Origin: Brachynemurus nebulosus
Taxonomy: Eukaryota > Arthropoda > Insecta > Neuroptera > Myrmeleontidae
Assembly: GCA_035578155.1 (NCBI GenBank)
Contig: JAPWDM010000008.1
Coordinates: 33,254,280 to 33,318,279 of the forward strand
Reading direction: 5' to 3'
Length of the DNA stretch: 64,000 bases
In this document: piece after piece, positions 4,116 to 60,050 of the stretch
Layout of the letters: each line of letters starts with the position of its first letter
Position numbering within the stretch: the first letter of the stretch is position 1
Program-made: the position numbers and the translations under genes
The notes under the pieces: generated by a model
What the model was told of the DNA's origin: nothing
Database searches by the model: none
Seen by the model: only the letters and a program-made list of their open reading frames with translations

Positions 4116-4722
4116 TTAAATATTTTTGTATTAATTTTCAAAGGAACTTTTTCCGTTTCACAAAAAATAAACAATCTCCTGCTGCGATTTAGGTTCAATT
4201 TTTAAAACTATATTATAGACCCAATATGATTCTGTTTCACCAAATTTCTTAACTGCACACTGGACAGTACCCTAATTGTGCGAACCCGACTTATTTTGAA
4301 TGAAATTACAAACATTACGTTTTGATCAGGATATTTAGAAAAAATTTTAGTTCCAAAATAATTTCCTCACTTTTTTCGTTCCCATTGCTAATTTTTTGTT
4401 ATAAATCACTCGCAGTATAAAACTTTTTTTCATCATGCTTTCAAAAAAATAAACATTCACACTATTTTAATAAAGAAAAAATACCACCAAATATCACAAT
4501 ATAAAATAAAATACCTGCTGGGCTGTTTGTGACCTGTAAATTCTTAATCTATTATGGAAAATTCTTCGCATAACACACGAAAACTTATTCTATCAACACA
4601 CATAAATCTTTCTACCGATATATCATTTTTCTTTTATGAATTTTTTATCCCATTCTCGTGTAAATACTTACCATATTTTATACATACATATTGGTACAAG
4701 TATGTCCTATAGTCCTATAGAG

Positions 4723-27014: not shown

Positions 27015-27392
27015 CAACGCGGTATAAAAAAACTCGGCTTTAATGTGTTTCCCTTTTCATATTTTAGTCATTTCCTTGAAAAATATGAAAAACTGGTACA
27101 GAATTTTTTACAACAACGCTTCGTAGCTTATTAGTGCTAATTTCTAAATATATACCGTGTTTTATAAGAGAACCTTATGTGACCTTGTGAAGTAAGTGCT
27201 CTAATACAAATTGCTGTATCAGAGCAACTGTGAATCTTGCGAGATTTTTGAAAAATTCTAAAAGCTTCTTGTTTTTCTTTGGTAATAGAGAACGAATCGA
27301 TTTATGTACTCAAAAGAAGCTCAGATGGAATAACTTTCAAAGAAATGTTCTATTAAAGAATTACAAAGTCTTTAACTTTTTTTTATCTCTAA

Positions 27393-27924
27393 CAAGGAGA
27401 GGGCACGACATGGGAAATTGACTTTGGGATGGGATTTCGCAGGATTATAGTCGCCTAGAAGATTAATCAATTGTGAAAATATAAAGACCTACTGGCCAGT
27501 CAATTTCGAGAAAAACGCTTTCAAAAATTATTAAGTAAATGGTTACGAATTAAAAAAAAATGCAATTACATTTTAATTTATGATATTTATTGTTAGAAAT
27601 AATTATTTATTTTTGAAATATATTAATTTTAATATTTAATTAACAAAATAAAAAAATAAAAAATTACTTGCAGTCGGAATCGAACCCGTGCACTCGTTGC
27701 CACTATGATACGCTACCGATTGAGCTAAACTAACTGTTAATTTGACATTCAAATGTATGATATATAAACATACAGTAAATGAAGTTAGAATTTTGAAAGC
27801 GTTTTTCTCGAAATTGACTGGCCAGTAGGTCTTTATATTTTCACAATTGGTTAATCATCTAGGCGACTATAATCCTGCGAAATCCCATCCAAAAGTCAAT
27901 TTCCCATGTCGTGCCCTCTCCTTG
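27393..27924. mobile_element. Foldback MITE (PIF/Harbinger-like TAA duplication) with tRNA-like cargo
   Basis: The inverted arms of about 135 bp are nearly identical (27,393-27,527 and 27,789-27,924). They begin CAAGGAGAGGGCACGACATG, with TAA on both sides (27,390-27,392 and 27,925-27,927). The 260-bp loop contains a tRNA-like sequence on the minus strand. No transposase is seen. Confidence 0.8.
27665..27736 (-). tRNA. Degenerate tRNA-like sequence with intact A and B boxes
   Basis: On the minus strand the A box TAGCTCAATCGG and the B box GGTTCGATTCC both match the pol III consensus and are correctly spaced for a tRNA. The acceptor and T stems pair poorly and the anticodon stem is unclear, so this is a tRNA-derived sequence rather than a functional tRNA. 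It sits in the loop of a foldback MITE. Confidence 0.5.
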
Positions 27925-27929
27925 TAAGA

Positions 27930-28539: not shown

Positions 28540-29227
28540 GGTGATTTCGGATAATTAGTCGATTAATCGGTTTAGTCGACCAATTGTGTTTACATCTGAT
28601 CATTTTTAGTCGACTATTTTACCTTCGACTAAATGACAAAATTTTTTTTTTTAAATGACTAAAAGTGACTAATTTATTAACTTTTCTGTATTAATAAACA
28701 CATATTTTACTTTGCAAAATACCACTTTTATTTTTAAAACTGTGACAATATTGTTTCGAACCGTTAGTTCATTTTCAAACTTATTCTGTTTGAAAATTAA
28801 CTAACGGTTCGAAACAATATTGTCACAGTTTCAAAAATAAAAGTGGTATTTTGCAAAGTAAAATATTTGTTTATTATTTACAAATTTGGAATACCATAAA
28901 GTAACGCTCAAATCTATTAATATTTTCTGTATTATTTATTGGATTTCAAATAATGAAAACACAAAAATTATCTATTTGTACAATTTTTTACTTTTATGTG
29001 ATTTTTCTTTTTTTTTAAAAATACGTTAAAAGTCAATAATTAAATCCAAAATTAAAGATCCTTTTTGAAAGAGTTATACAGGTTACCTCTATTCATGAAT
29101 TCGATTAAAAATTTAGTCGATTAGTCGACTATTGTTCGTTTGATATTTTCGACTGATGACTAAATTTGTCTGAAAAACAACTTGAGTCGATTAATCGACT
29201 ATAACTGCTTGACGGTTCGACATCACT
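28540..29227. mobile_element. Probable MITE rich in AGTCGATTAATCGAC, containing a hairpin
   Basis: AGTCGATTAATCG near 28,556 is mirrored by GAGTCGATTAATCGACT near 29,183. The right edge reads GGTTCGACATCACTA and the left edge TAGTGATG-like. Many TTAGTCGA words lie at both ends. A near-perfect hairpin occupies the middle. The superfamily is unproven. Confidence 0.55.
28692..28880. repeat. Near-perfect inverted repeat with 9-base loop
   Basis: Arms of about 90 bp run from TTAATAAACACATATTTTAC to the loop CTTATTCTG and back. They include GGTTCGAAACAATATTGTCA and its complement. Only a few mismatches are visible, which implies a recent origin or a selected structure. Confidence 0.85.
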
Positions 29228-37175: not shown

Positions 37176-37632
37176 CTAAAGTCTCTGAAGAAGATGCGAA
37201 TTTCGGAGAAATTCAAGCATCTTTCTTTCAGAGACTGCATCATAAGCTAAAGCTTCGGCTACACTACCTGGGAGCTGCAACCTCTGGCGCAATGGCTCAA
37301 AAGTTACACATTCCTCAACTATATGCCTCACTGGCTGATCCTCACCGGCGAGAAGATGACGATGTGTTAACGCCGTGTGGCCCAAGCGTAAACGTGTCAG
37401 GGCCACACTCTCTCGCCGGCTCAGATTTACAGGTTCCGGAGTTCTTCGGACCTCAGGTTTCACCTGTTTGAGCTTCGCCGTGAGGTTGTTCCACTCACGT
37501 TGCCATTTATGTTCGATCGCGGATCTAATGCACACTCTCAGATCCTCTGGGCGAATGGCAATGTCCTGTGGCTCACCGACTTCGGCTGCATGACGTGCTG
37601 CCTGGTCGGCGAGTTCATTGCCAGGTATCCCT
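37176..37632 (-). pseudogene. LINE ORF2, 3' part: RNase H end and C-terminal tail
   Basis: The minus frame begins at the truncation point with GNELADQAARHAAEVGEPQD, the RNase H motif GNExADxxA that carries a late active-site Asp. It continues with WQREWNNL, then VALTRLRLGHTALTHRHLL and HIVEECVTF, the tail found after RNase H in Jockey/I-group LINEs. There it usually contains a CxxC...H..C zinc motif. Here the CxxC cysteines appear lost (GEDQPVRHIVEEC). Endonuclease and reverse transcriptase are absent through 5' truncation. The frame is open to its stop at 37,176, so this copy is relatively young, but it cannot encode an active protein. Confidence 0.8.
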
Positions 37633-43269: not shown

Positions 43270-43275
43270 CAAATT
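43270..43275. repeat. Left 6-bp target-site duplication of the large element
   Basis: CAAATT, identical to 52,935-52,940 and placed exactly outside the inverted ends AGTAG and CTACT. Confidence 0.75.
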
Positions 43276-43699
43276 AGTAGAATAGCTGAGCGGGTTCTAT
43301 GACACAGTAAAACCTCAATTATCCGGACTACTTTTTTGACCGTGTTAAGAACCGTGTAGTTTGGGGTCCTACTGTACCTAGTGTATGAATTGACCTTTGA
43401 CCTGGCACGTACATGTATTTAAAAATTGTTGTTGACATTTGACCCCACACTCGCTCATACTGTTGGCCTTGAAATTCGTAAGAGATGAGTCATTACCAGC
43501 AACCAAATTAATTTATGTTAACCCATTATGCGTCATCACAATTTACTTATAACAATTTGGTTTTGTGTTAACCCATTACCCGCCAGCACTGACGTAGTTT
43601 TTGAATGCAAACCTAACGCATGCGCAGACTGAATTTAAGTACACGACGCATGCGCAGACTGAATTTTAGGTTACAATTTGATAGATGGGGCACACTATC

Positions 43700-44165
43700 G
43701 CGTCTAAAATGTGGGGAATACCCTAACTCGGGGGTGGCCCCAAACTTTTGATACCGTACTGTACTTAAATTTTTGGTACACTGCCGTGTCAAAAGTGTGG
43801 ACCCCCCTGGTCAAAAAGGTATCCGATCACTTTTTGAAACGTACTGTACGTGCAAACCTTGGCCCCAACACGCGCTTGCCTTAAGTACGTCATCTTAAAC
43901 GAACTATCACGTCAAAAAATGTGGGGAATACCCTAACTCGGGGGTGGCCCCAAATTTTTGACGCCGTACTGTACTTAAATTTTTGGTACACTGCCGTGTC
44001 AAAAGTGCGGGCCCCCCTGATCAAAAAGGTATCCGATCACTTTTTGAAGCGTACTGTACGTGCAAACCTTGACCCCAACACGCGCTTGCCTTAATTGCGT
44101 CATTTTAAACGAAAGGTACATTACCAAGTCAAAGATGTGGGGAATACCCTAACCCACGGGGTGGC
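43700..44165 (+). repeat. Tandem ~210-bp subrepeats in the left arm
   Basis: GTGGGGAATACCCTAACTCG occurs at 43,711 and 43,921, and a diverged third copy (GTGGGGAATACCCTAACCCA) at 44,137. GGTACACTGCCGTGTCAAAA, CGTACTGTACGTGCAAACCT and CCCCAACACGCGCTTGCCTT recur between them. The right arm holds the mirror copy (52,040-52,505). Confidence 0.85.
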
Positions 44166-44199
44166 CGCTAAATTTTGTGGGGGCACTGTACCAAGCGCT

Positions 44200-45360
44200 A
44201 GATTTTAAAACCAGACTCCGGGGTCCAGATTTCTGACCGCTACTGTAATGCCGGAAATCGAGTGTTAACTGTACCGTATGGGGATTTTTGGTATATTTAA
44301 CCTTGGAAAATTCCAGGAATTTTTATCAGTTTTAAAATAAACAAACAACCAATAATTAAATGTTTATTTTAGCTGAATTATGATCATATGACTCATATAT
44401 GGAGTTCTTTTGGTATAAGAAAGATGACGTCATGGAATATTAATGAGTTAAAAAATTGTTTAGTAAAAAATATCACCCATTGTAGGCCTCAAGCAAAAAA
44501 TTATTTTTATCAGTTTTAATACTTTAACATTTAACTTACAGTGACCAATTTTTTAGTTAACTAACAAAAGTTCTTGAAATTTTAACAAGTTACAAAAAAT
44601 ATTACTTCTTATGGTGCACAACACTTTTGAATTTGACTGTAGCACAAAACTGTTTCTATATCAAACGAAAATTATCTGAAATAATTCAGTATGTATATAT
44701 GTATAGACTCTGTATATTAAAAATATTTTATGTATACACTCTGTATATTGAGAATAAGAAAGAAAATTTGTATATAATTTTAATTTTTATGAATACTAGT
44801 AAACGAATTGTATAGCCATTTATGAATAAGTATTAAAACTAATTATAAAATAATTTATAAATATTGCAAAAAATTTGTTTAATCAGCAAAATCAATGTAT
44901 ATCATTTTAATACTGATACATATTTATATTAGGGTATAATAGTATTGTATTTAAATTACTATAAACACGTCGCTTAATATAAAAATGATAACAGCATTGA
45001 GTTTTACTAAATTTTTAAATCTGTAAAATCAAATTTTTATAGACTAGAACATTTTGAATTTGCTACTTTATCATTAACATACATATAATATCATGTATAT
45101 ATAACGGGTGTATATTTAGTATTTTTAATAAATATTTTAGTATACAGGGTGTATCATGAAATATGCTTTTCAATTAGAACAATAAATTTCATAAGATTTT
45201 TGTTAATACTCTTATAGGTTAACGAAAGAAACTTTTTGCTGTAAAAAATAGGGGAATTCAGGGTAATAATTAAATAAAACGCACATATTTTTCTTTTTTT
45301 TAAGTTTTATTTATAGAATATGAATACAAAAAATTAAATTGCTTAAATCTATATATTACT
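44200..45360. other. AT-rich non-coding spacer of the left arm
   Basis: Mirrored at 50,690-51,990 in the right arm. A 62-codon frame (44,627-44,815 plus, and 51,228-51,416 minus) is open in both arms but is explained by arm identity and has AT-rich composition. It is not called a gene. Confidence 0.4.
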
Positions 45361-45366
45361 AAAAAT

Positions 45367-45833
45367 CTATTTATTTTACATATTAAAATTTTTTAAAAGA
45401 ATACAGTTTTCTAATGAACAAATTTTATCTGAATGGATCATACAGCGTCTTGAATAATATTCATCTCGCAGATTGGAAATCTTCGGTACATCAAATATTT
45501 CTTCCAAATTCAAAATCCACGGCTGGTTTTCGGTACCATCAAACAAATTTGAAATCCATTTCTTCTTTTCACCGCCCTTGAAACTTCTTTAATATAGGTT
45601 TCAATATGGAATGAAGTTTTTTGTACGGAATAAATCCATATGACCAAGGTATCCCATGCCAATTTCGGCAAAGCCAACGTGCAGCAACCCGTTCATATTT
45701 CTTCGGCAACTCGTTGAAATCAAACGGTGCATCGAATATAAGATGTAGTATTTCATCCGAATTTTCCGCAACGATACCAACTTCTTTAAAATAAAAAAGC
45801 TCCTTGATAGCCTTGTATATCAAGAAACGCCAT
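45367..45833 (-). pseudogene. Outward gene B, left copy (KGxEK family), broken
   Basis: The start codon at 45,831-45,833 is intact and leads into LDIQGYQ. The frame then breaks at a T6 run just downstream. The main body follows in the next frame, with HLIFDAPFDFNELPKKYE and the HGIPWSYG...IPYKK block. A deletion of about 14 bp near 45,583 removes the residues before the KGGEKKKW motif and shifts the frame again. The C-terminal region survives only as sequence. From memory, proteins with DxQG, HGxxW..G and VKGxEK motifs are frequent in insect genomes beside virus-like mobile elements. Their biochemical role is not known to me; an RNase H-like nuclease fold is a guess. A TATA/initiator pair lies upstream. 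Confidence 0.6.
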
Positions 45834-45851
45834 TTTTTATCGCCGCCGTAG

Positions 45852-45889
45852 AACTGAATTTACTCACACAATCCACAACTTTATATAAA
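45852..45889 (-). promoter_or_regulatory. Core promoter of left gene B
   Basis: On the minus strand TATATAAAG is followed about 31 bases later by TCAGTT, the insect initiator consensus. About 20 bases further is the gene start. This mirrors 50,093-50,127. Confidence 0.6.
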
Positions 45890-45995
45890 ATAATTAAAAT
45901 TGGTGAGGATAGTTAATTTGTGGGATGTATCCGAAAATGGACACTACTAATAGCTATTGCTAGTTAACCATCAAATTACAAACTGTTAATAATAT

Positions 45996-46172
45996 TTAGC
46001 ACATTACTGAGTACCATGTTCTTTTCACTTTAAGACCTAGTGATTTAAGGAATGCTAAATTTTCGGGTGAAATGTGTTGTCGCTTAAAAGTTTTACGTTT
46101 AATGATCTTAGGTTTCGAAAGTCCTTTGCTAGGTTGTTTAGCGTTGGACTGCTCTGAATTGTAAATTATCAT
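45996..46172 (-). CDS. Outward gene A, left copy: 58-residue basic protein
   Basis: ATG at 46,170-46,172, stop at 45,996-45,998, 58 residues. It differs from the right-arm copy only at positions such as SNAK for STTR. Composition is strongly basic (KPKIIKRKTFKRQ), followed by HISPENLAFLKSLGLKVKR. No cysteine motif, signal peptide or membrane segment is seen. The frame is open in both arms while neighbouring genes are broken, which hints at retained function or short target size. From memory, small basic proteins with an xPENxxFLxSLGL end occur in insect Polinton-like elements; no role is assigned. A TATAAA lies upstream on the minus strand near 46,282-46,287. Confidence 0.6.
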   Translation of the reverse strand: MIIYNSEQSNAKQPSKGLSKPKIIKRKTFKRQHISPENLAFLKSLGLKVKRTWYSVMC

Positions 46173-46251
46173 GGTTCGAAATGCAATTGTTTTACCACGA
46201 AATTGTTTTTTTCAGCGAAAGTGATGTTAACTCTTTGACAACCACCGGTAA

Positions 46252-46287
46252 ATTGACAATATTTTGTGTAAGTTTAACTAATTTATA
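46252..46287 (-). promoter_or_regulatory. Probable core promoter of left gene A
   Basis: TATAAA on the minus strand (46,282-46,287), followed about 32 bases later by TCAATT. The same arrangement is mirrored in the right arm at 49,696-49,731. Confidence 0.45.
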
Positions 46288-46304
46288 CCCTTTAACCATG
46301 ATAA

Positions 46305-47971
46305 TGTGTGTGAGCCCTTTAACCATGATAAGGTGTATGAGCTCTTTAACCATGATAAGGTGTATGAGTCACTCCAGGGGAAAAATAAGTCACTCCGGGG
46401 GCAAAATGAGTCACTCCGGGAGTAATATGAGTCATTCCGGGAGCAAAAAGAGTTTATCCGGGAGCAAAATGAGTCACTCCGGGAGCAAGATGAGTCACTC
46501 CGGAAGCAAAATGAGTCACTCCGGGGGCAAAATGAGTCACTCCGGGGAGCAAAATGAGTCAATCCGGGAGAAAAGTGAGTCACTTCGGGAGCGAAATGAG
46601 TAACTCCGGGAGCAAAATGAGTCACTCCGAGAGCAAAATGAGTCACTCCGGGAGCAAAATTAGTCACTCCGGGAGCAAAATGAGTCACTCCGGGAGCAAA
46701 ATGAATCACTCCGGGAGCAAAATGAGTCACTCCGGGAGCAAAATGAGTCACTCCGGGAGCAAAATGAGTCACTTCGGGAGCAAAATGAGTCACTCCGGGA
46801 GCAAAATGAGTCACTCCGGGAGCAAAAGAGTCACTCCGGGAGCAAAATGAGTCACTCCGGGAGCAAAATGAGTCACTCCGGGAGCAAAATGAGTCACTCC
46901 GGGAGCTAAATGAGTCACCCCGGGAGCAAAATGAGTCACCTCTGGAGCAAAATGTGTCACTCCGGGAGCAAAATGTGTCACTCCGGGAGCAAAATGAGTC
47001 ACCCCGGGTAAAATGAGTAACTCCGGGAGCAAAATGAGTCACTCCGGGAGCAAAATGAGTCACTCCGGGAGCAAAATGAGTCACTCCGAGAGCAAAATGA
47101 GTCACTCCGGGAGCAAAATGAGTAACTCCGGGAGCACATTGAGTAACTCCGGGAGCAAAATGAGTCACTCCGGGAGCAAAATGAGTCACTCCGGGAGCAA
47201 AATGAGTAACTCCGGGAGCAAAATGAGTCACTCCGGGAGCAAAATGAGTCACTCCGGGAGCAAAATGAGACACTCCGGGAGCATGTGAGTCACTCGTTGG
47301 AGTCAAATGAGTCGCTCGGTGAAGCAAATGAGCTAAGTATATATATGAAATTGTCTGAACCGGAATCAATGGACTGGGATAAAATAGATGTTTCAATTGG
47401 TGTATTTTTCGAACGTGAACCAATGCTGCTGAACGAACTGACTTTGGAAACATTTCTTTAAATCTACAAGTGAATCAGTTTGAATGTGCTGAAAAGTTAT
47501 GGTGCGAGAATCATACAACGCGCCTGGATTTGGTTACCAGCCGATTATCAAGCCATGTTTCAAGAATGTGAACCATGTTTTGAATATTATAATCGACCCT
47601 GGCAACAAGATCATATTGATGGACCACCTGGTTTGAAAATTCGCTGTGAAATGTGCAAGAATGGCGTGAAAATGGAGGAAAACTTTCAACCACCCGTTGG
47701 TGAACCATTGACATCTGCAACACGGATTTCACACGTTGAAGACATATTTCTGACTCATCCTTATTTGTATACAAAAGTCAGAAATTTCGATATGTTATTA
47801 TACTTAACAAAACAACTATTGAAATATGATATTTGGGTGCAACATCTGTATGCATATATGATACCCGAATATGCACAACGAATTTGTCAAGTATGGGATC
47901 AGTTACCTGAAAACATGAAACAGTTACGTTCGGGTGTTATTGAATATATAAACAAATCATACAATTTTTAA
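46305..47971 (+). pseudogene. Inward gene spanning left arm, 21-bp array and centre; interrupted
   Basis: One plus frame reads three 9-residue repeats (FNHDKVYEL type) and then 7-residue repeats ESLREQN through the array. The same frame exits the arm as NELSIYMKLSEPESMDWDKI. It stops at TAA 47,459, meets a further TGA, and reopens as the 163-residue frame 47,480-47,971. That last part has two CxxC pairs (CEPC at its residues 30-33, CEMC at 56-59), which would suit a zinc ribbon. It also has a helical, aromatic-rich C terminus, and AATAAA follows at 48,073. In-frame stops (for example GAG TAA within the array) make this copy non-functional unless spliced. The family is not recognised. The heptads could form a coiled coil, or may be a by-product of the 21-bp period. 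Confidence 0.45.
46366..47283 (+). repeat. 21-bp tandem array with TGAGTCA sites, left (about 43 units)
   Basis: The unit is TGAGTCACTCCGGGAGCAAA plus one A. Most units are identical, with a few single changes and small indels. Each holds TGAGTCA, the palindromic AP-1/bZIP site, and the near-palindrome CTCCGGGAG. GC content is much higher than in the surroundings. The period of 21 is a multiple of 3, so frames on both strands stay open for long distances, giving spurious ORFs of up to 391 codons. Confidence 0.95.
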
Positions 47972-49307
47972 TATTTATTTATTGTAAAAAATATTTCATA
48001 TACATTTGTTGTAAAAAATATTACATATACATTTATTGTGAAAATATTTTGTATTCATACTTATTTTTTAAAAATAAAGAACAATAATTATTTACATATA
48101 TGTGTTATTTATTTGAAAAAAAAAAAACCTTTTTATCTTACAGGGTTAAAAAATATAAAAATAAAATATACACTTCAATGAGGGATAACTGCTGCTTCTT
48201 ATACGGTGGTGTTCTTCAAAATTCAGTAAATTCTTAGTGTGGATAATCAATTAATCATCATCATCATCATCATCATAATCGCTAGCATCTTCTTTATCAG
48301 TTTCATCCAGATAATCACCTAGTGGTTCAATAACATCAGCCTTTTGAAGTTCGCGAAGTATAGAGAATATTTCTCGACCAACAGTAGTTTCTTTTAAAGC
48401 ATTTAACTCTTTGATTAAATCTTCTCGATCGTAAACGTTAAACAACAACATATTTTTATTTTCCTCTAAACTTCGAATAATGTTGAGTATTTTTTCACCA
48501 GTCTCTGAAGTCTCGTATAAACGTTGTAATTCATCTATTAAAGTATTAGGATTATGCCAGTATTTTATTTTTTTCGATTGTATGTTAACATTTCTACACT
48601 CTCTCAAGTTGTCTTGCTTAAAATGCTTAGCTAAGGCCCCGTTTTCGACATTTTCATTTGAAGCTATATGACGTTTTAAGCTTATTGGTTTAACCTGATT
48701 GACAATTTTCGCTTCATTTTCCGAGTCAACGTTTCGAACCTCTTTTAACATTATAATATCTAAAGCAGTTCCTAAAAGTTTAGTTAGTTGTGAAGAGGAG
48801 GTTGTTTCATTGCAATTGTTATTAATTGCTGTTAAGTGATTTACTTGCTTACTTTCATTAGACCAACTATCTTTCTCGTTTTCAGATTGATGACGGTTTT
48901 CTCCTCTTTTCAAAGAGTTAAATTTGGTTTGAATGGCTTCAGTTGCAGCATCTATCCTTTTTTGGTCAAACGGATTCAAGATTGCTTCAGAGTAATCAAT
49001 ATCATGCTGTAGTTGAGATGTATTTTCATCATCATTATCATCAAATCTAGATATAGAGATATCAGCAGGTGTTTTATTATTATTAGCATCATATGATATG
49101 AATTTGCTTGGTGAGTTATCATTCTTTCCAATCGTACCATCATTAATATTGCTTAACGAATTATGTTGAGCATTTAAGTGTCTAGAAAGATTAGACTTTC
49201 GCGTAAATGCTTTACCACAAAAATCACAATTATACATCGTTCAGCGGGAGGTCTGAAGCGTTCGCTAGTAAATGAATAACTGTTCAAAGATTTATTGCTT
49301 CTCTACT
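47346..49307. other. Unique centre of the large element
   Basis: Contains the 3' part of the inward gene (plus, ending 47,971) and the zinc-finger gene (minus, ending 48,251). The two converge on a 280-bp spacer with AATAAA signals on both strands (48,073-48,078 plus; 48,108-48,113 as the minus-strand signal). Confidence 0.75.
48251..49237 (-). CDS. C2H2 zinc-finger protein with acidic tail, 328 residues
   Basis: ATG at 49,235-49,237; the frame is uninterrupted to 48,251. One N-terminal C2H2 finger is complete (C4, C7, H20, H25; CDFCGKAFTRKSNLSRH), with the usual F and L core residues. A long polar low-complexity region follows. At residues 224-231 KIKYWHNP introduces two related helical repeats (about 232-258 LIDELQRLYETSETG..., and 274-299 LIKELNALKETTVGR...). 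The protein ends in an Asp-rich tail made by an ATC repeat. A single finger plus an acidic tail suggests DNA or protein binding, perhaps regulation of the element. From memory, YWxxPNxL-type repeats occur in insect mobile-element or virus-linked proteins. It is the only long intact gene of the element and one of the few intact genes in the window. Confidence 0.75.
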   Translation of the reverse strand: MYNCDFCGKAFTRKSNLSRHLNAQHNSLSNINDGTIGKNDNSPSKFISYDANNNKTPADISISRFDDNDDENTSQLQHDIDYSEAILNPFDQKRIDAATEAIQTKFNSLKRGENRHQSENEKDSWSNESKQVNHLTAINNNCNETTSSSQLTKLLGTALDIIMLKEVRNVDSENEAKIVNQVKPISLKRHIASNENVENGALAKHFKQDNLRECRNVNIQSKKIKYWHNPNTLIDELQRLYETSETGEKILNIIRSLEENKNMLLFNVYDREDLIKELNALKETTVGREIFSILRELQKADVIEPLGDYLDETDKEDASDYDDDDDDD

Positions 49308-49316
49308 TATATATAC
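49278..49316 (-). promoter_or_regulatory. Probable core promoter of the zinc-finger gene
   Basis: On the minus strand TATATATAAG is followed about 33 bases on by AACAGTT, close to the initiator TCAGTT. The ATG follows about 40 bases later. The TATA run coincides with the exact inner end of the right arm. Confidence 0.5.
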
Positions 49317-49719
49317 TTAGCTCATTTGCTTCACCGAGCGACTCATTTGACTCCAACGAGTGACTCACATGCTCCCGGAGTGTCTCATTTTGCTCCCGGA
49401 GTGACTCATTTTGCTCCCGGAGTGACTCATTTTGCTCCCGGAGTGACTCATTTTGCTCCCGGAGTGACTCATTTTGCTCCCGGAGTGACTCATTTAGCTC
49501 CCGGAGTGACTCATTTAGCTCCCGGAGTGACTCATTTTGCTCCCGGAGTGACTCATTTAGCTCCCGGAGTGACTCATTTTGCTCCCGGGGTGACTCATTT
49601 TGCTCCCGGAGTGACTCATACACCTTATCATAGTTAAAGAGCTCATACAGCTTATCATGGTTAAAGGGCTCATACACATTATCATGGTTAAAGGGTATAA
49701 AATAGTTAAACTTACACAA
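49306..49719 (-). pseudogene. Inward gene, right-arm copy, truncated
   Basis: The same reading frame as the left inward gene: three FNHDKLYEL-type 9-residue repeats, then about 13 ESLREQN heptads without a stop, then ETLREHVSHSLES and NELSIYK and a stop just past the arm junction. The unique C-terminal part present on the left is absent, because the arm ends there. No ATG precedes it in frame. A GTAAGT donor-like sequence upstream may mean that an earlier exon exists. Confidence 0.4.
49371..49619 (-). repeat. 21-bp tandem array, right (about 12 units)
   Basis: Same unit as the left array on the opposite strand, starting next to CACATGCTCCCGGAGTGTCT. In this array the ESLREQN frame has no stop, whereas the other sense frame is closed by GCTAAA variants. 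Confidence 0.95.
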
Positions 49720-49731
49720 AATATTGTCAAT
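49696..49731 (+). promoter_or_regulatory. Probable core promoter of right gene A
   Basis: TATAAAA at 49,696-49,702 and TCAATTT about 31 bases later. The gene start is 80 bases further on. Confidence 0.45.
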
Positions 49732-49809
49732 TTACCGGTGGTTGTCAAAGAGTTAACATCTCTTTCGCTGAAAAAACAATTTCGTGGTATAACAATTGCA
49801 TTTCGAACC

Positions 49810-49986
49810 ATGATAATTTACAATTCAGAGCAGTCCACCACTAGACAACCTAGCAAAGGACTTTCGAAACCTAAGATCATTAAACGTAAAACTTTTAAGC
49901 GACAACACATTTCACCCGAAAATTTAGCATTCCTTAAATCACTAGGTCTTAAAGTCAAAAGAACATGGTACTCAGTAATGTGCTAA
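49810..49986 (+). CDS. Outward gene A, right copy: 58-residue basic protein
   Basis: ATG at 49,810, stop at 49,984-49,986. It is nearly the same protein as 45,996-46,172 in the left arm, with a basic centre (KPKIIKRKTFKRQ) and an ISPENLAFLKSLGLKVKR end. A longer upstream frame exists from 49,657, but the left copy's equivalent is not conserved as coding, so the internal ATG is preferred. The ATG shares its CATG palindrome with an ATG on the opposite strand. No function is known. Confidence 0.6.
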   Translation: MIIYNSEQSTTRQPSKGLSKPKIIKRKTFKRQHISPENLAFLKSLGLKVKRTWYSVMC

Positions 49987-50092
49987 ATATTATTAACAGT
50001 TTGTAATTTGATGGTCAACTAGTAATAGCTATTAGTATCCATTTTCGGATACATCCCACAAATTAACTATCCTCACCAATTTTAATTATTTT

Positions 50093-50127
50093 ATATAAAG
50101 TTGTGGATTGTGTGAGTAAATTCAGTT
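50093..50127 (+). promoter_or_regulatory. Core promoter of right gene B
   Basis: TATATAA at 50,093-50,099 and TCAGTT at 50,122-50,127, with the initiator A 31 bases from the TATA start. This is the canonical spacing for insect core promoters. Confidence 0.65.
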
Positions 50128-50145
50128 CTACGGCGGCGATAAAAA

Positions 50146-50624
50146 ATAGCGTTTCTTGATATACAAGGCTATCAAGGAGCTTTTTTTATTTTAAAGAAGT
50201 TGGTATCGTTGCGGAAAATTCGGATGAAATACTACATCTTATATTCGACGCACCGTTTGATTTCAACGAGTTGCCGAAGAAATATCAACGAGTAGCCAGT
50301 TGGCTTTACCGAAATTGGCATGGGATACCTTGGTCGTATGGATTTATTCCATACAAAAAACTTCATACCATATTGAAACCTATATTAAAGAAGTATGATG
50401 TTATATACGTCAAGGGCGGTGAAAAGAAGAAATGGACATCAAGTTTGTTTGATGGTACCGAAAACCAGCCGTGGATTTTGAATTTGGAAGAAATATTTGA
50501 TGTACCGAAGATTTCCATTCTGCGAGATGAATATTATTCAAGACGCTGTATGCTTCATTCAGATAAAATTTGTTCATTAGAAAATTGTATTCTTTTAAAA
50601 AATTTTTATATGGAAAATAAATAG
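50146..50624 (+). pseudogene. Outward gene B, right copy (KGxEK family), start and N terminus damaged
   Basis: The start codon seen on the left is ATA here (50,146-50,148). A T7 run at 50,171-50,177 breaks the frame after DIQGYQ. From 50,271 the frame is open for 117 residues and carries the full C-terminal part missing on the left: HGIPWSYG (residues 17-24), YVKGGEKKKW (47-56), LNLEEIFDVPKISIL, and a C..H...C....C group (C93, H96, C101, C106). AATAAA follows at 50,680. The two arm copies are damaged at different positions, and neither encodes the whole protein. Confidence 0.65.
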
Positions 50625-52039
50625 ATTTTAAGTAATATATAGATTTAAGCAATTTAATTTTTTGTATACATATTCTATAAATAAAATTTAAAAAAAAGAA
50701 AAATATGTGCGTTTTATTTAATTATTACCCTGCATTCCCCTATTTTTTTACAGCAAAAAGTTTCTTTCGTTAACCTATAAGAGTATTAACAAAAATCTTA
50801 TGAAATTTATTATTCTAATTGAAAAGCATATTTCATGATACACCCTGTATACTAAAATATTTATTAAAAATACTAAATATACACCCGTTATATATACATG
50901 ATATTATTTGTATGTTAATGATAAAGTGGCAAATTCAAAATGTTCTATGTGTCTATAAAAAATTTTGATTTTACAGACTTAAAAATTTAGTAAAACTCAA
51001 TGCTGTTATCATTTTTATATTAAGCGACGTGTTTAACTTATAGTAATTTAAAACCAAAAATTGAACTTTTATTCTGTTTAAAAATGTTAAATACAATACT
51101 ATTATACCCTAATATAAATATGTATCGAAGTATTAAAATGATATACATTGATTTTGCTGATTAAACAAATTTTTTGCAATATTTATAAATTATTTTATAA
51201 TTAGATTTAATACTTATTCATAAATGGCTATACAATTCGTTTACTAGTATTCATAAAAATTAAAATTATATACAAATTTTCTTTCTTATTCTCAATATAC
51301 AGAGTGTATACATAAAATATTTTTAATATACAGAGTCTATACATATGTACATACTGAATTATTTCAGATAATTTTCGTTTGATATAGAAACAGTTTTGTG
51401 CTACAGTCAAATTCAAAAATGTTGTGCACCATAAGAAGTAATATTTTTTGTAACTTGTTAAAATTTCAAGAACTTCTGTTAGTTAACTAAAAAATTGGTC
51501 ACTGTAGGTTAAATGTTAAAGTATTAAAACTGATAAAAATAATTTCTTGCTTGAGGCCTACAATGGGTGATATTTTTTACTAAACAATTTTTTAACTCAT
51601 TAATATTCCATGACGTCATCTTTCTTATACCAAAAAAACTCCTTATATGAGTCTTACGATCATAATTCAGCTAAAACAAACATTTAGATATTGGTTCTTT
51701 GTTTATTTTAAAACTGATAAAAATTCCTGGAACTGACAAGTTGAGACTTGCTTTTAAATAAAAATCCTCTCTGACTATGATGCAAACATATCATGAAATT
51801 ACATCATCCTGAGTCAGCTAAAAAAATCTTAAATAAACAAACTCAAACCGTATAAAGTCACGAGTTTTTATTAAATAAACATCTTATAAAGTGCTGACTC
51901 ATATACAAAAAAAAACCTCAAGTACAATTGACACCCAAATTTCCGGCAGTACAGTAGCGGTCAGAAATTTGGAGTCTGGAATCTGGAGTCTGAAGTCATG
52001 ATTGCGGCTAGCGCTTGGTAGAGTGCCCCCCACAAAATT

Positions 52040-52505
52040 TAGCGGCCACCCCTTGGGTTAGGGTATTCCCCACATTTTTGACTTGGTAATGTACCTTTCG
52101 TTTAAAATGACGCAATTAAGGCAAGCGCGTGTTGGGGTCAAGGTTTGCACGTACAGTACGCTTCAAAAAGGGGTCGGATACCTTTTTGGTCAGGGGGGCC
52201 CGCACTTTTGACACGGTAGTGTACCAAAAATTTAAGTACAGTACGGCGTCAAAAATTTGGGGCCACCCCCGAGTTAGGGTATTCCCCACATTTTTTGACG
52301 TGATAGTTCGTTTAAGATGACGTACTTAAGGCAAGCGCGTGTTGGGGCCAAGGTTTGCACGTACAGTACGTTTCAAAAAGTGATCGGATACCTTTTTGAC
52401 CAGGGGGGTCCACACTTTTGACACGGCAGTGTACCAAAAATTTAAGTACAGTACGGTATCAAAAGTTTGGGGCCACCCCCGAGTTAGGGTATTCCCCACA
52501 TTTTA
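52040..52505 (-). repeat. Tandem ~210-bp subrepeats in the right arm
   Basis: Mirror of 43,700-44,165: CGAGTTAGGGTATTCCCCAC at two places plus a diverged copy, with AAGGCAAGCGCGTGTTGGGG between. Confidence 0.85.
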
Positions 52506-52934
52506 GACGCGATAGTGTGCCCCATCTATCAAATTGTAACCTAAAATTCAGTCTGCGCATGCGTCGTGTACTTAAATTCAGTCTGCGCATGCGTTAGGTT
52601 TGCATTCAAAAACTACGTCAGTGCTGGCGGGTAATGGGTTAACACAAAACCAAATTGTTATAAGTAAATTGTGATGACGCATAATGGGTTAACATAAATT
52701 AATTTGGTTGCTGGTAATGACTCATCTCTTACGAATTTCAAGGCCAACAGTATGAGCGAGTGTGGGGTCAAATGTCAACAACAATTTTTAAATACATGTA
52801 CGTGCCAGGTCAAAGGTCAATTCATACACTAGGTACAGTAGGACCCCAAACTACACGGTTGTTAACACGGTCAAAAAAGTAGTCCGGATAATTGAGGTTT
52901 TACTGTGTCATAGAACCCGCTCAGCTATTCTACT

Positions 52935-52940
52935 CAAATT
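52935..52940. repeat. Right 6-bp target-site duplication of the large element
   Basis: CAAATT, matching 43,270-43,275. Confidence 0.75.
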
Positions 52941-57210: not shown

Positions 57211-58044
57211 TTACCGACTACTATGATCACTTAGGATCTTCTGCGCAGTTACACACAGCTGATGATAAACTATCAAATTCAAGTTGTCAGTTTGATTGTT
57301 ACAATTTTCGTGTGTATTTATCCACAGGCTTTCTAGATTCAGTCTTTTTTTGAGATTTCTCTGATATTGCAGCACTCTCGTGTTCTGAAAATGAAAACGG
57401 TGGTCTTTTTCATTGGAGTGTTGCGCCAGTCCGGTACGAAAATCACTTCTAGCCAAATCCCACTGGTGTTGTGTCAGACGTAGCTCTAACGATTTCGACG
57501 TTTGGCCTATATAAAAAAGTTGACAACCAGCACACGGAATGGAGTAAATAAGATTATCCTTCTTTTCAGGTGGTATAGTTGGTTTTTGTCTGGTGTAAAG
57601 GGAATTTTTGATCGCGAAAGGATAACTAAATACCGGTCGTAAGCCATTTGACCGCAGAAGAAAGGATACGGGGCCAGTATGTTGTCCTAAGCGTGGTATT
57701 TTTAAAAAATTATTATATTTTGTCGTATTGTCGGTATTATTAGATGGTGTGAAATTATTATAGTGTCGGTGTACGACTGTTTTTACTGTGCTATTAATTA
57801 TTGGTAAAAGGAAATTATTCTTTTTTAAGATATCTTTGGCAATTTTTAGTGTTTCTGGGCGGTGCTTCGGATGAGTCAGATTAACGGCTCTATTTATGAT
57901 ATTGTAGGCAATGTTTCGCCTGACGTGCAACGGGTGTCCAGAGTGCCAGTTGATCAGCCTAGTCGAGCAATAAGACTTTCTATGCCACATTGTATCAAGT
58001 ATGTTATTTTCATCTCTTGTGATTAGCACATCCAAAAATGTCAA
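57211..58044 (-). pseudogene. Penelope-like reverse transcriptase C-terminus + GIY-YIG endonuclease
   Basis: A 277-codon open frame. Residues 3-10 (FLDVLITR) and 33-80 (WHSGHPLHVRRNIAYNI, NLTHPKHRPETLKIAKDIL) match the last part of the Penelope reverse transcriptase. A linker follows (PRLGQHTGPVSFLLRSNGLR). The GIY-YIG nuclease begins at about 165: LIYSIPCAGCQLFYIGQTSK holds the paired cysteines and the GIY-YIG core (IYSI...FYIG). Then come R189, H193 (LRLTQHQ), H209 in LAQHSNEKDHRFHF, and the conserved Glu in NLESLWI (about 238). The frame is free of stops but has no start, since the 5' part is missing. The nuclease residues look intact. Confidence 0.85.
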
Positions 58045-58059
58045 AAAATCTTTGATAAA

Positions 58060-60050
58060 AATTAGATAGTAACATTAACTTCACTTTCATTATTATTACT
58101 TATCAGTTAATTTCTATGCTTTTCAGACTATTAGTATTCAGCAAATCGACATAGAAATTAAAATAAATCAAAATATAAATTAATTTATTATTTTTTCCCC
58201 ATATTTTTGTGATGTCATATAAAATTAATACCATTTTCTCCTACCTTAAGACTTTCGCGAATGAATCCTTTTGATCAAGGAATCCTTTTATTTCTTTTAA
58301 ATAAAATTGAGAATATAATTACTAAATTTTTTGAAGAAAATAAGATAATATTAGTATCTCTTTACAAGTTAATTTTTCTAATTTTAAATCTGCAAGCATG
58401 TCGCTTGTAACTGACAAGTCAATTCAATAAAACAAATTTTTTTATACCTGCCCATCGGTTTAATACTACACGAGTTCTATATGAAAATATGTATATTATT
58501 ATGTAATTTTACGTCCGATGTAATAATAGATGGACATGTGTGGTATATTTTATTGAAAAATTTCTGTCGTATTGATAGAAAAAAATAAAACAAATATTCA
58601 TTAACAGTTTTAATTGTTTTATAAATCAATTTGTTGGATGTGAACTTTTTCAACCATTACCGTCATTTTATTGTTTAGAGGTATAGATATAGATTTTAAT
58701 AAATAAATATGTATTTGTATATACCGTTTGTTTCGGAGAAGTAAGAACATACAAAATCTAACATGGGAAAAATTGTTGGGATCAGAGCATGCTTATATTG
58801 TACGAAAGTGACTTTTATATAGTATCATTAGTATCCATAATTGTAAAATTGTATTTTTTGAAAATAAAAGTATAATTGCCATAAATATAAGAAATTTTAT
58901 TAAATAGTATCACGGTACACGATTTTGGTTCCTTGTGCGCAACGGATATGTTGATTATTTTCGTTTAATAAATAAAACTCAATTTATTCTTAATTTCAAT
59001 TTATTTAATTTAATTTAATGTTTGTTACATTTATTTTCTATTGATCGTGACACCTGACATAAAAATCTGAGAGAAGTCATTACATTGTTACAATGTCAAA
59101 AATTAGTTGTTCCAAATTACGTCTGTCTAGTTTCACGTTACAAACATCTCTCTCCTTTTTGGTGCGGTGGCTCATCGCACCGGCACCCCCTTTCATCATA
59201 GTCATCAACACAATTCGGGTATTCCCCGTATATACATGTACATTTTATTTAAAATCTTTTACATATAATGACAAGTTTAATACATCAATTGTTCATAACA
59301 TCCGAGTTATGTCGTTTACATAATATTTTACACAATGTCGTGTTTGCTGAAATTCCACGACAAAAAATATCTGTTAGTAGTGAATTTTAATGTTAATTTA
59401 ATATTTATACTTATAATAAATTTTCTGCTGTTGGCTTCTAATTATTTTGAAACATTATTTCCCTGTAATACTTTATTATTTCATTTTTTGTTGACAATTT
59501 AACTCATATGTATCAGTTAAGTCCCATAAGAATAGGTATTGTAGTTTTTTTCCCTTTGACCATGGAAAAGAAGTTAGGACAGATTTTTACAGCGAGAAAA
59601 ATGGTACAAAACATTTCATCGGTCGTTTTGTTGTATGTAAACATGATAAAAATGAAGCAAAAATTCCGTATTGGCAAATTTAACTAATTTAAGAGCCATG
59701 GTAACAATGCTTTAAATTATAATATGAATTATACTAATTCATTTTATTCGTTAAATAGTCTTACCGTATTAAACTTGAGTTTTACGTATATTTTTTCTAA
59801 ATAAATTTGTGTTTTCTACAACTCAAATTTTTGGCCTAAAAGTAATTTAATTGTCAACCCAAAAACGCTTCAGCTTCGCTGTCGCGTTTTTATTAGTTGA
59901 CAGTTTTTCTCGTTGAAGTGTTAGGCAACAAACTTTCGTTAGAAAAACTCAAATTTATTGGTAAAAATACAAACCTCTCGTGTAGGTGAATTATAAGCGA
60001 ATATTAACTAAAACCAAATTAAACCACCTTTGATCGGAATAATTTTTTTC
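58060..60050. other. AT-rich stretch, nothing recognised
   Basis: About 2 kb without a supported gene, RNA or element. A possible hairpin lies near 59,855-59,900 (GTCAACCCAAAAACGC against GCGTTTTTATTAGTTGAC). Confidence 0.35.

What the first reader, a model, noticed from the sequence alone, without database searches (positions are those of the whole stretch)
43270..52940. Polinton-like ends on a 9.66-kb near-palindrome without any Polinton core gene
Seen: perfect 39-bp terminal complementarity starting AGTAG, CAAATT duplicated on both sides, arms of 4.07 and 3.63 kb, and only small genes inside. Known: Polintons/Mavericks make 6-bp duplications and have AG ends, but usually carry polymerase B, integrase, ATPase, protease and capsid genes and have TIRs of roughly 0.1-1 kb. 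Inference: either a non-autonomous Polinton derivative mobilised in trans, or a head-to-head fusion of two defective copies. Giant arms holding genes would be an unusual and possibly undescribed architecture.
Basis: partly seen in the sequence, partly recalled or inferred. Interest (0 to 1): 0.88.

Follow-up and report, generated by a model that had tools for sequence, protein, structure and literature searches.

The report
Mirror-image satellite of Polinton transposons
This 9.7-kb stretch belongs to a family of roughly two hundred near mirror-image mobile elements that share their ends with full-length Polintons (virus-like transposons) in the same genome but lack the polymerase, integrase and major capsid genes; they likely arose when one end was copied onto the other during replication and are probably moved by the full elements' proteins, which would leave a rare genomic record of how Polintons replicate.

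Summary
In detail: 43276-52934 is a 9,659-bp near-palindrome flanked by CAAATT. Its ends match perfectly over 73 bp, not 39. It is not a singleton: 16 of 16 tested copies with these ends carry an exact 6-bp duplication. Two of them are 16.6-16.8-kb Polintons with PolB, integrase, ATPase, PLA2-like, protease-like and capsid genes. Thirteen without PolB (window copy plus 12 fetched) all have giant arms. The junction that makes the palindrome occurs 230 times (reversed-pattern control 0). A PolB-bearing, integrase-less relative looks like the parent: the palindrome equals it with the PolB end replaced by an inverted copy of the other end. Copy E19 is an almost perfect mirror image turning beside a native 10-bp palindrome; junction spacing suggests more. 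Within an element the outer ends match each other better than those of other elements, and six satellites carry full-length-type outer ends on both arms over parent-type interiors. Best reading: integrated snap-back satellites of Polintons, probably mobilised in trans. Neither mobilisation nor fold-back was observed, and the window copy's own inner arms are unequal. Its zinc-finger gene shows no purifying selection. New variant of a known kind.

The parts
43270..43275 (.). left target-site duplication CAAATT
   Evidence: 16 of 16 tested copies with these ends have an exact 6-bp duplication
52935..52940 (.). right target-site duplication CAAATT
43276..47345 (.). left arm of the palindrome, ending at the junction AAGTATATATA|TGAAATTG
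49308..52934 (.). right arm of the palindrome
43276..44274 (.). outer terminal repeat (Polinton TIR); first 60 bp identical to full-length copy E7
51922..52934 (.). outer terminal repeat, other side
45141..45915 (-). left-arm copy of the g162 region (gene of unknown function next to the major capsid gene in E7); frame broken, 96-aa open stretch at 45569-45859
50064..50851 (+). right-arm copy of the g162 region; 154-aa open frame at 50160-50624, 97% identical to the E7 protein over 147 residues
45999..46211 (-). left-arm remnant of the candidate minor-capsid gene (71-aa frame)
49615..49986 (+). right-arm remnant of the candidate minor-capsid gene (123-aa frame; 48% and 52% identity to L040:4307-4456 and 4453-4653)
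46256..47345 (.). 21-bp tandem array and array edge, left arm
49308..49661 (.). 21-bp tandem array and array edge, right arm, upstream of the zinc-finger frame
47346..48157 (+). spacer part 1: 3' part of gene f, the gene next to PolB (165-aa frame at 47474-47971, 97% identical to the C-terminal part of the E10 255-aa frame)
48251..49240 (-). spacer part 2: C2H2 zinc-finger protein (329-aa open stretch, 328 aa from its ATG)

Best explanation
This is a non-autonomous Polinton: it has Polinton ends and a 6-bp target duplication but no polymerase, integrase or major capsid gene, its polymerase-side end was likely replaced by an inverted copy of the other end during linear-DNA replication, and it is probably replicated and inserted by proteins of full-length Polintons in the same genome. 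Proposed mechanism. (1) A full-length Polinton gave rise to a deletion derivative that kept PolB, gene f, a zinc-finger gene, a 21-bp array, a minor-capsid remnant, g162 and both ends; this type is seen at L054/L055, its place as parent is inferred. (2) In one founder the PolB side was lost at a fixed point inside f, and the strand folded back on, or switched to, the opposite end; copying that end gave a palindrome with two origins. The shared junction is seen; the fold-back is inferred. (3) The palindrome multiplied as a unit and integrated with 6-bp duplications, presumably by the integrase of full-length copies. The copies are seen; the trans-acting step is inferred. (4) During replication one end would repeatedly serve as template for the other, giving identical ends within an element and full-length-type outer ends on both arms at once. 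The identity and mosaics are seen; the process is inferred. (5) Fold-back recurs: copy E19 is an almost perfect mirror image turning beside the native AAAATATTTT.
For: Ends and duplications: 14 of 14 fetched elements, plus E15 and the window copy. Full-length copies E7/E10 with the same ends and 1.2-kb TIRs: in E7, DJR major capsid 1.6e-123, rve integrase 4e-15, A32-type ATPase, PLA2-like domain and PolB 62% identical to Megastigmus wasp adintovirus PolB; E10 matches the same eight E7 proteins. Giant arms in 13 of 13 copies without PolB, that is the window copy and 12 fetched, and in 3 of 3 copies chosen by the zinc-finger gene. Junction 230 times, control 0, at the same place in 14 of 16 satellites examined; E8 lacks f, L052 had no exact match to the search string. 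Parent type. E19. Own right arm ranks first for 14 of 14 elements, 0 of 100,000 shuffles. Arms differ at 0-4 sites over the outer 3 kb in 8 of 13 copies. In E8, E9, E11, E12, E18, E19 the outer 350 bp of both arms are 99.2-99.7% identical to E7 (70% to the parent type), while 0.9-1.2 kb in they are 94-96.5% identical to the parent's capsid-side arm (43-49% to E7), gaps counted.
Against: No replication intermediate, transcript or protein was observed. The window copy and its sister E1 are not homogenised further in (W: 24, 29, 6, 23, 9 differences per 500 bp after 1 in the first 500) and kept that asymmetry when copied, so palindromes are not rebuilt at every move; at 0.9-1.2 kb the window's left arm is parent-like and its right arm E7-like. 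E5 (16 in one 500-bp block) and E9 (11 in one block) also have unequal stretches; E8's 88 fall in a block that runs past the end of its 2.9-kb arm. The PolB frames of E7 and of the parent type do not hit Pfam DNA_pol_B_2; the call rests on homology and a YTDTDS motif. The chromodomain match of the integrase is just under Pfam's cut-off; the protease match is weak. The 14 fetched elements were picked by similarity to the window's end, so E7-type ends are over-represented; the three picked by the zinc-finger gene have other outer ends. The parent type sits in an AT repeat, so its TATATA duplication is uninformative.
Confidence: 0.75

Rival explanations
1. The founder palindrome was made by joining two separate defective molecules head to head (end joining or recombination between inverted arrays) rather than by fold-back of one molecule; later spread in trans is the same.
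For: The junction shows no clear microhomology to the E7 sequence by eye and lies at the edge of a 21-bp array present in both orientations. The window copy has two arms that differ by several percent, one parent-like and one E7-like at 0.9-1.2 kb.
Against: E19 turns with almost no spacer beside a native 10-bp palindrome, with arms differing at 0-2 sites per 500 bp, which is what one folded strand gives. Eight of 13 copies have arms differing at 0-4 sites over 3 kb.
Confidence: 0.2
2. The arms were equalised after insertion, by gene conversion between the two arms in the chromosome, as in chromosomal palindromes.
For: Arms of one element are more alike than arms of different elements.
Against: It does not create the shared inverted junction or explain why sister copies W/E1 at two loci keep the same unequal arms. 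Outer ends of E7 type on both arms need an exchange with full-length elements first.
Confidence: 0.08
3. Two ordinary copies were inserted next to each other in opposite orientation, or the assembly folded a read back on itself.
For: Such arrangements look like palindromes.
Against: The duplication lies outside both arms and the flanks differ on the two sides in 14 of 14 copies. The same junction occurs 230 times. The spacer is asymmetric.
Confidence: 0.02

Closest known systems
Polinton/Maverick elements, insect adintovirus type
   Same: AG-starting ends, 6-bp duplications, and an autonomous-looking partner with PolB, rve integrase with a sub-threshold chromodomain match, ATPase, protease-like and capsid genes. 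Adintoviruses are described with a chromodomain integrase (PMC11071296, passages) and as 13-14.5-kb PolB/integrase/capsid genomes in fly samples (PMC8363768, passages).
   Different: This element has none of the core enzymes and its terminal repeats are 3.6-4.1 kb with genes inside, against 1.2 kb in the full-length copies.
AAV snap-back genomes (defective interfering particles)
   Same: Self-complementary genomes keeping one viral end, symmetric or asymmetric, replicating with Rep and helper functions (PMC8235507, passages).
   Different: AAV does not use protein priming (recalled), and those forms were seen in virions. Here they sit in a host genome in roughly two hundred copies.
Deletion derivative of the kalilo mitochondrial plasmid
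   Same: A derivative of a linear plasmid reported to form hairpin and duplex DNA (title of Vierula and Bertrand 1992, seen only as reference 47 of PMC11071308); that kalilo is a pPolB plasmid is recalled.
   Different: Mitochondrial plasmid of a fungus. I did not read that paper.
Foldback/Galileo transposons
   Same: Long, internally repetitive inverted ends (PMC3573991, abstract start in search listing).
   Different: Galileo is classed with P elements in that abstract. Here the ends and the partner genes are Polinton.

Membership tests
Polinton/Maverick, as an autonomous member | 6-bp target-site duplication | tested here: met
   16 of 16 tested copies with these ends
Polinton/Maverick, as an autonomous member | terminal inverted repeats starting AG | tested here: met
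   AGTAGAATAGC; other variants AGTAGATAGG
Polinton/Maverick, as an autonomous member | protein-primed PolB gene | tested here: not met
   no PolB match in the window element; present in E7, E10 and the parent type
Polinton/Maverick, as an autonomous member | rve integrase gene | tested here: not met
   no match in the window element; present in E7 and E10
Polinton/Maverick, as an autonomous member | packaging ATPase, protease and major capsid genes | tested here: not met
   no match except a remnant of a candidate minor-capsid gene; ATPase and major capsid in E7 by Pfam, protease only by a weak match, E = 0.021
Non-autonomous derivative of a Polinton | shares ends with a full-length element in the same genome | tested here: met
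   first 60 bp 100% identical to E7
Non-autonomous derivative of a Polinton | moved by enzymes supplied in trans | not testable with these tools
   inferred from own 6-bp duplications in copies lacking the enzymes
Snap-back (fold-back) genome | inverted duplication of one genome end including the presumed replication origin | tested here: met
   both arms derive from the capsid-side end; that the origin lies there is inferred
Snap-back (fold-back) genome | turn point at a short inverted repeat, little or no spacer | tested here: inconclusive
   met in E19; the window element has a 1,962-bp spacer
Snap-back (fold-back) genome | extrachromosomal hairpin or duplex form | not testable with these tools
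   no DNA-form data
Foldback/Galileo | P-superfamily transposase partner | tested here: not met
   six frames of the element scanned with Pfam gave no transposase; E7 frames gave Polinton genes and none either

The most novel reading that the evidence does not exclude
A self-renewing lineage of hairpin satellites: Polintons throw off integrated snap-back genomes that outlive their founder, exchange ends with their helper, rebuild the mirror image by copying one end onto the other, and fold back again to give ever simpler palindromes, so the host germ line would hold a defective-interfering population of a virus-like transposon.
Probability: 0.4. Interest if true: 0.86.

Novelty: new variant of a known kind. 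Interest (0 to 1): 0.74.

Why it matters
Polintons are thought to replicate as linear DNA by protein priming, but in animals this rests mostly on gene content (recalled). A family of integrated palindromes with a shared breakpoint, ends exchanged with full-length copies and near-identical arms would be sequence evidence for an extrachromosomal linear stage with copying between ends. It would also add satellites to the Polinton world, in numbers that could load the helper, and it makes testable predictions on hairpin DNA forms and on transcription from inverted arms.

Tried and rejected
Selection on the zinc-finger gene: pairwise dN/dS runs from 0.61 to 2.21 among pairs with at least 8 differences, so I do not claim a maintained satellite gene. 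Ten of 11 frames found were 312 residues or longer, E3's being cut by the fetched stretch; E4's stops at 79. The g162 frame with its start motif is whole in both arms of E3 and one arm of E9 and 90 aa long in E2, E4, E8, E18, E19 and E9's other arm; it was not found with that motif in W, E1, E5, E6, E11, E12. L051 has full-length g162 matches in both arms.

The zinc-finger protein had no tblastn match in E7/E10. A 35-residue match at 43% to the C-terminus of an E7 gene is weak.

Protein search with the g162 frame scored nothing. PDB search with it gave only weak hits. IMG/VR scan with the capsid protein gave no relative. PDB search with the candidate minor-capsid protein gave nothing informative; that name rests on gene order and is recalled. 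PDB search with the PolB frame matched only its zinc-finger stretch.

Host: not named by any search. The named protein relatives listed are insects, apart from a wasp-associated virus record.

First-look candidate numbers (2,283, 982 and 484) are not copy counts and I do not use them as such. Of the 40 scored zinc-finger places at least three (C11, C45, C77) lie beside PolB by position, so that list mixes satellites and PolB-bearing relatives; only the C11 one was fetched. A pair of junctions 5.7 kb apart on C58 was left out of the head-to-head set. Counts of the end motif and of the intact f junction could not be had.

Literature: six full-text searches aimed at non-autonomous, satellite or palindromic Polintons and four at comparators. 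No listed title describes such elements; the lists were capped and I read passages of two papers from these lists for this question. The six phrases, among them 'non-autonomous polinton' and 'non-autonomous maverick', gave 3 papers, all for 'polinton-derived'. Repbase is not held, so named non-autonomous Polintons there cannot be excluded.

Full report
Observation. The finding is real. The element is 43276-52934, 9,659 bp, flanked by CAAATT; its ends are complementary without a mismatch for 73 bp, more than the 39 bp reported. Arms of 4,070 and 3,627 bp enclose a 1,962-bp spacer; the matching blocks are 93-99% complementary.

Not a singleton. A search of the window's own genome (960 Mb, 138 contigs) with 225 bp of the end scored 40 of 2,283 first-look candidates; all 40 matched at 93% or more, and 38 of them form 19 inverted pairs 8-17 kb apart, the window's among them. 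I fetched 14 of the other 18 pairs. All 14 start and end with the same motif and carry an exact 6-bp duplication, each a different one. E15 (ends only) and the window copy make 16 of 16. E1 has the same length as the window copy, differs at 14 of 9,659 positions and lies in the opposite orientation at another locus.

Full-length relatives. Two copies (E7 at L039/L040, 16.8 kb; E10 at L044/L045, 16.6 kb) have 1.2-kb TIRs and are 98-100% identical in their main aligned blocks. E7 encodes an rve integrase (4e-15) with a chromodomain match just under Pfam's cut-off, an A32-type ATPase (4.4e-10), a PLA2-like domain (2e-12) and a double jelly-roll capsid protein (1.6e-123); a 141-aa frame has a weak match to a viral cysteine protease (0.021). 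The 1,167-aa PolB frame has no Pfam polymerase hit, but residues 500-1160 are 62% identical to PolB of Megastigmus wasp adintovirus and the frame contains YTDTDS. The first 60 bp of E7 are identical to the window's.

Anatomy of the palindrome. Both arms derive from the capsid-side end: TIR, a 0.8-kb stretch (b) absent from E7 and E10, g162, a remnant of the candidate minor-capsid gene, and a 21-bp array. The major capsid gene is missing. The spacer holds the 3' part of gene f, which follows PolB, and a zinc-finger gene. Thirteen of 13 copies without PolB (window copy and 12 fetched) have giant arms; three more chosen by the zinc-finger gene do too (one outer end of each lies outside the fetched stretch). 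None of these 16 has a tblastn match at E 1e-5 to E7's PolB, integrase, ATPase, PLA2-like, protease-like or major capsid protein within the stretch held.

Parent. At L054/L055 lies an element with TIR, b, g162, minor-capsid remnant, array, zinc finger, complete f, 1,176-aa PolB frame and TIR, without matches to the integrase, ATPase, PLA2-like, protease-like or major capsid genes. The window element equals this with everything from the PolB-side end to a point inside f replaced by an inverted copy of the other end. The junction reads AAGTATATAT[AG][TC]GAAATTGTC in 14 of 16 satellites (15 occurrences, E19 twice); E8 lacks f and L052 had no exact match to the search string. The pattern occurs 230 times in the genome with up to 3 mismatches, reversed control 0. 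A single origin followed by amplification is the simplest reading.

Recurrent inversion. E19 has f on both sides, no zinc finger, and an almost perfect centre beside a place where the normal sequence has AAAATATTTT. Among the 100 listed of 230 junctions, five further pairs face each other with f-to-f spans of 0.17-2.7 kb, implying turn points 84, 413, 678, 687 and 1,353 bp into the spacer (E19: 703). The three near 680-700 bp may be one event.

Copying between ends. In the outer kilobase an element's left arm is closest to its own right arm in 14 of 14 elements (sister copies E1 and E10 dropped), mean 99.2% against 87.3% between elements with gaps counted; 0 of 100,000 shuffles reach this. Without the parent type and with gaps ignored the between-element mean is 95.0%. 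Arms 1-3 kb in are up to 99.9% identical between non-sister copies, so the ends differ more between copies than the inside does, yet match within a copy. In E8, E9, E11, E12, E18 and E19 the outer 350 bp are 99.2-99.7% identical to E7 on both arms and 70% to the parent type, while the block 0.9-1.2 kb in is 94-96.5% identical to the parent's capsid-side arm and 43-49% to either E7 arm, gaps counted. I infer exchange of ends with full-length elements followed by copying of one end onto the other, as a linear protein-primed replicon would allow. Against a strict rule: W and E1 share unequal inner arms, W's left arm is parent-like and its right arm E7-like at 0.9-1.2 kb, and E5 and E9 have an unequal stretch each.

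Function. The most likely life is that of a satellite: presumed origin-bearing ends, no enzymes. Gene retention looks passive: dN/dS of the zinc-finger gene 0.61-2.21 and g162 broken or shortened in most copies.

Novelty. Snap-back genomes are known in AAV (PMC8235507, passages), and a hairpin-forming deletion derivative of the kalilo plasmid is in print (title only). My searches listed no description of palindromic or non-autonomous Polintons, within an open-licence library and capped lists only.

Noticed in passing
46256-47345, 49308-49661; L040:680-1372: The satellite and the full-length copy E7 both carry a 21-bp tandem array just upstream of a TATA-like sequence and gene start (by eye), with different unit sequences: a possible promoter array.
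   Followed up: partly
L043:2034-4076: About 2 kb of sequence not matched by the satellite segments interrupts the right arm of copy E9 only.
   Followed up: no
G000, many contigs: The host genome holds many other PolB stretches: 193 DNA_pol_B_2 matches from 75 scored of 1,288 candidates (several per gene), some in open frames of about 1,400 codons, suggesting numerous Polinton families.
   Followed up: no
L051, L052, L053, L054: Further end variants, AGTAGATAGGCTA and AGTAGAATAGCTAGGCC, replace the outer 30-130 bp in related copies.
   Followed up: partly
G000:C122:41920762-41932380: E15, 11.6 kb with a PolB match inside and a GAAGTT duplication, looks like another PolB-bearing deletion derivative closer to the E7 lineage.
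   Followed up: partly
57211-58074: Frame with a GIY-YIG-like C-terminal region resembling a Penelope-like retroelement (recalled, not tested).
   Followed up: no
37176-37631: Frame resembling the RNase H end of a non-LTR retrotransposon (recalled, not tested).
   Followed up: no
27388-27929 and 28692-28876: Two short inverted repeats, arms 139 and 89 bp, 97% complementary.
   Followed up: no
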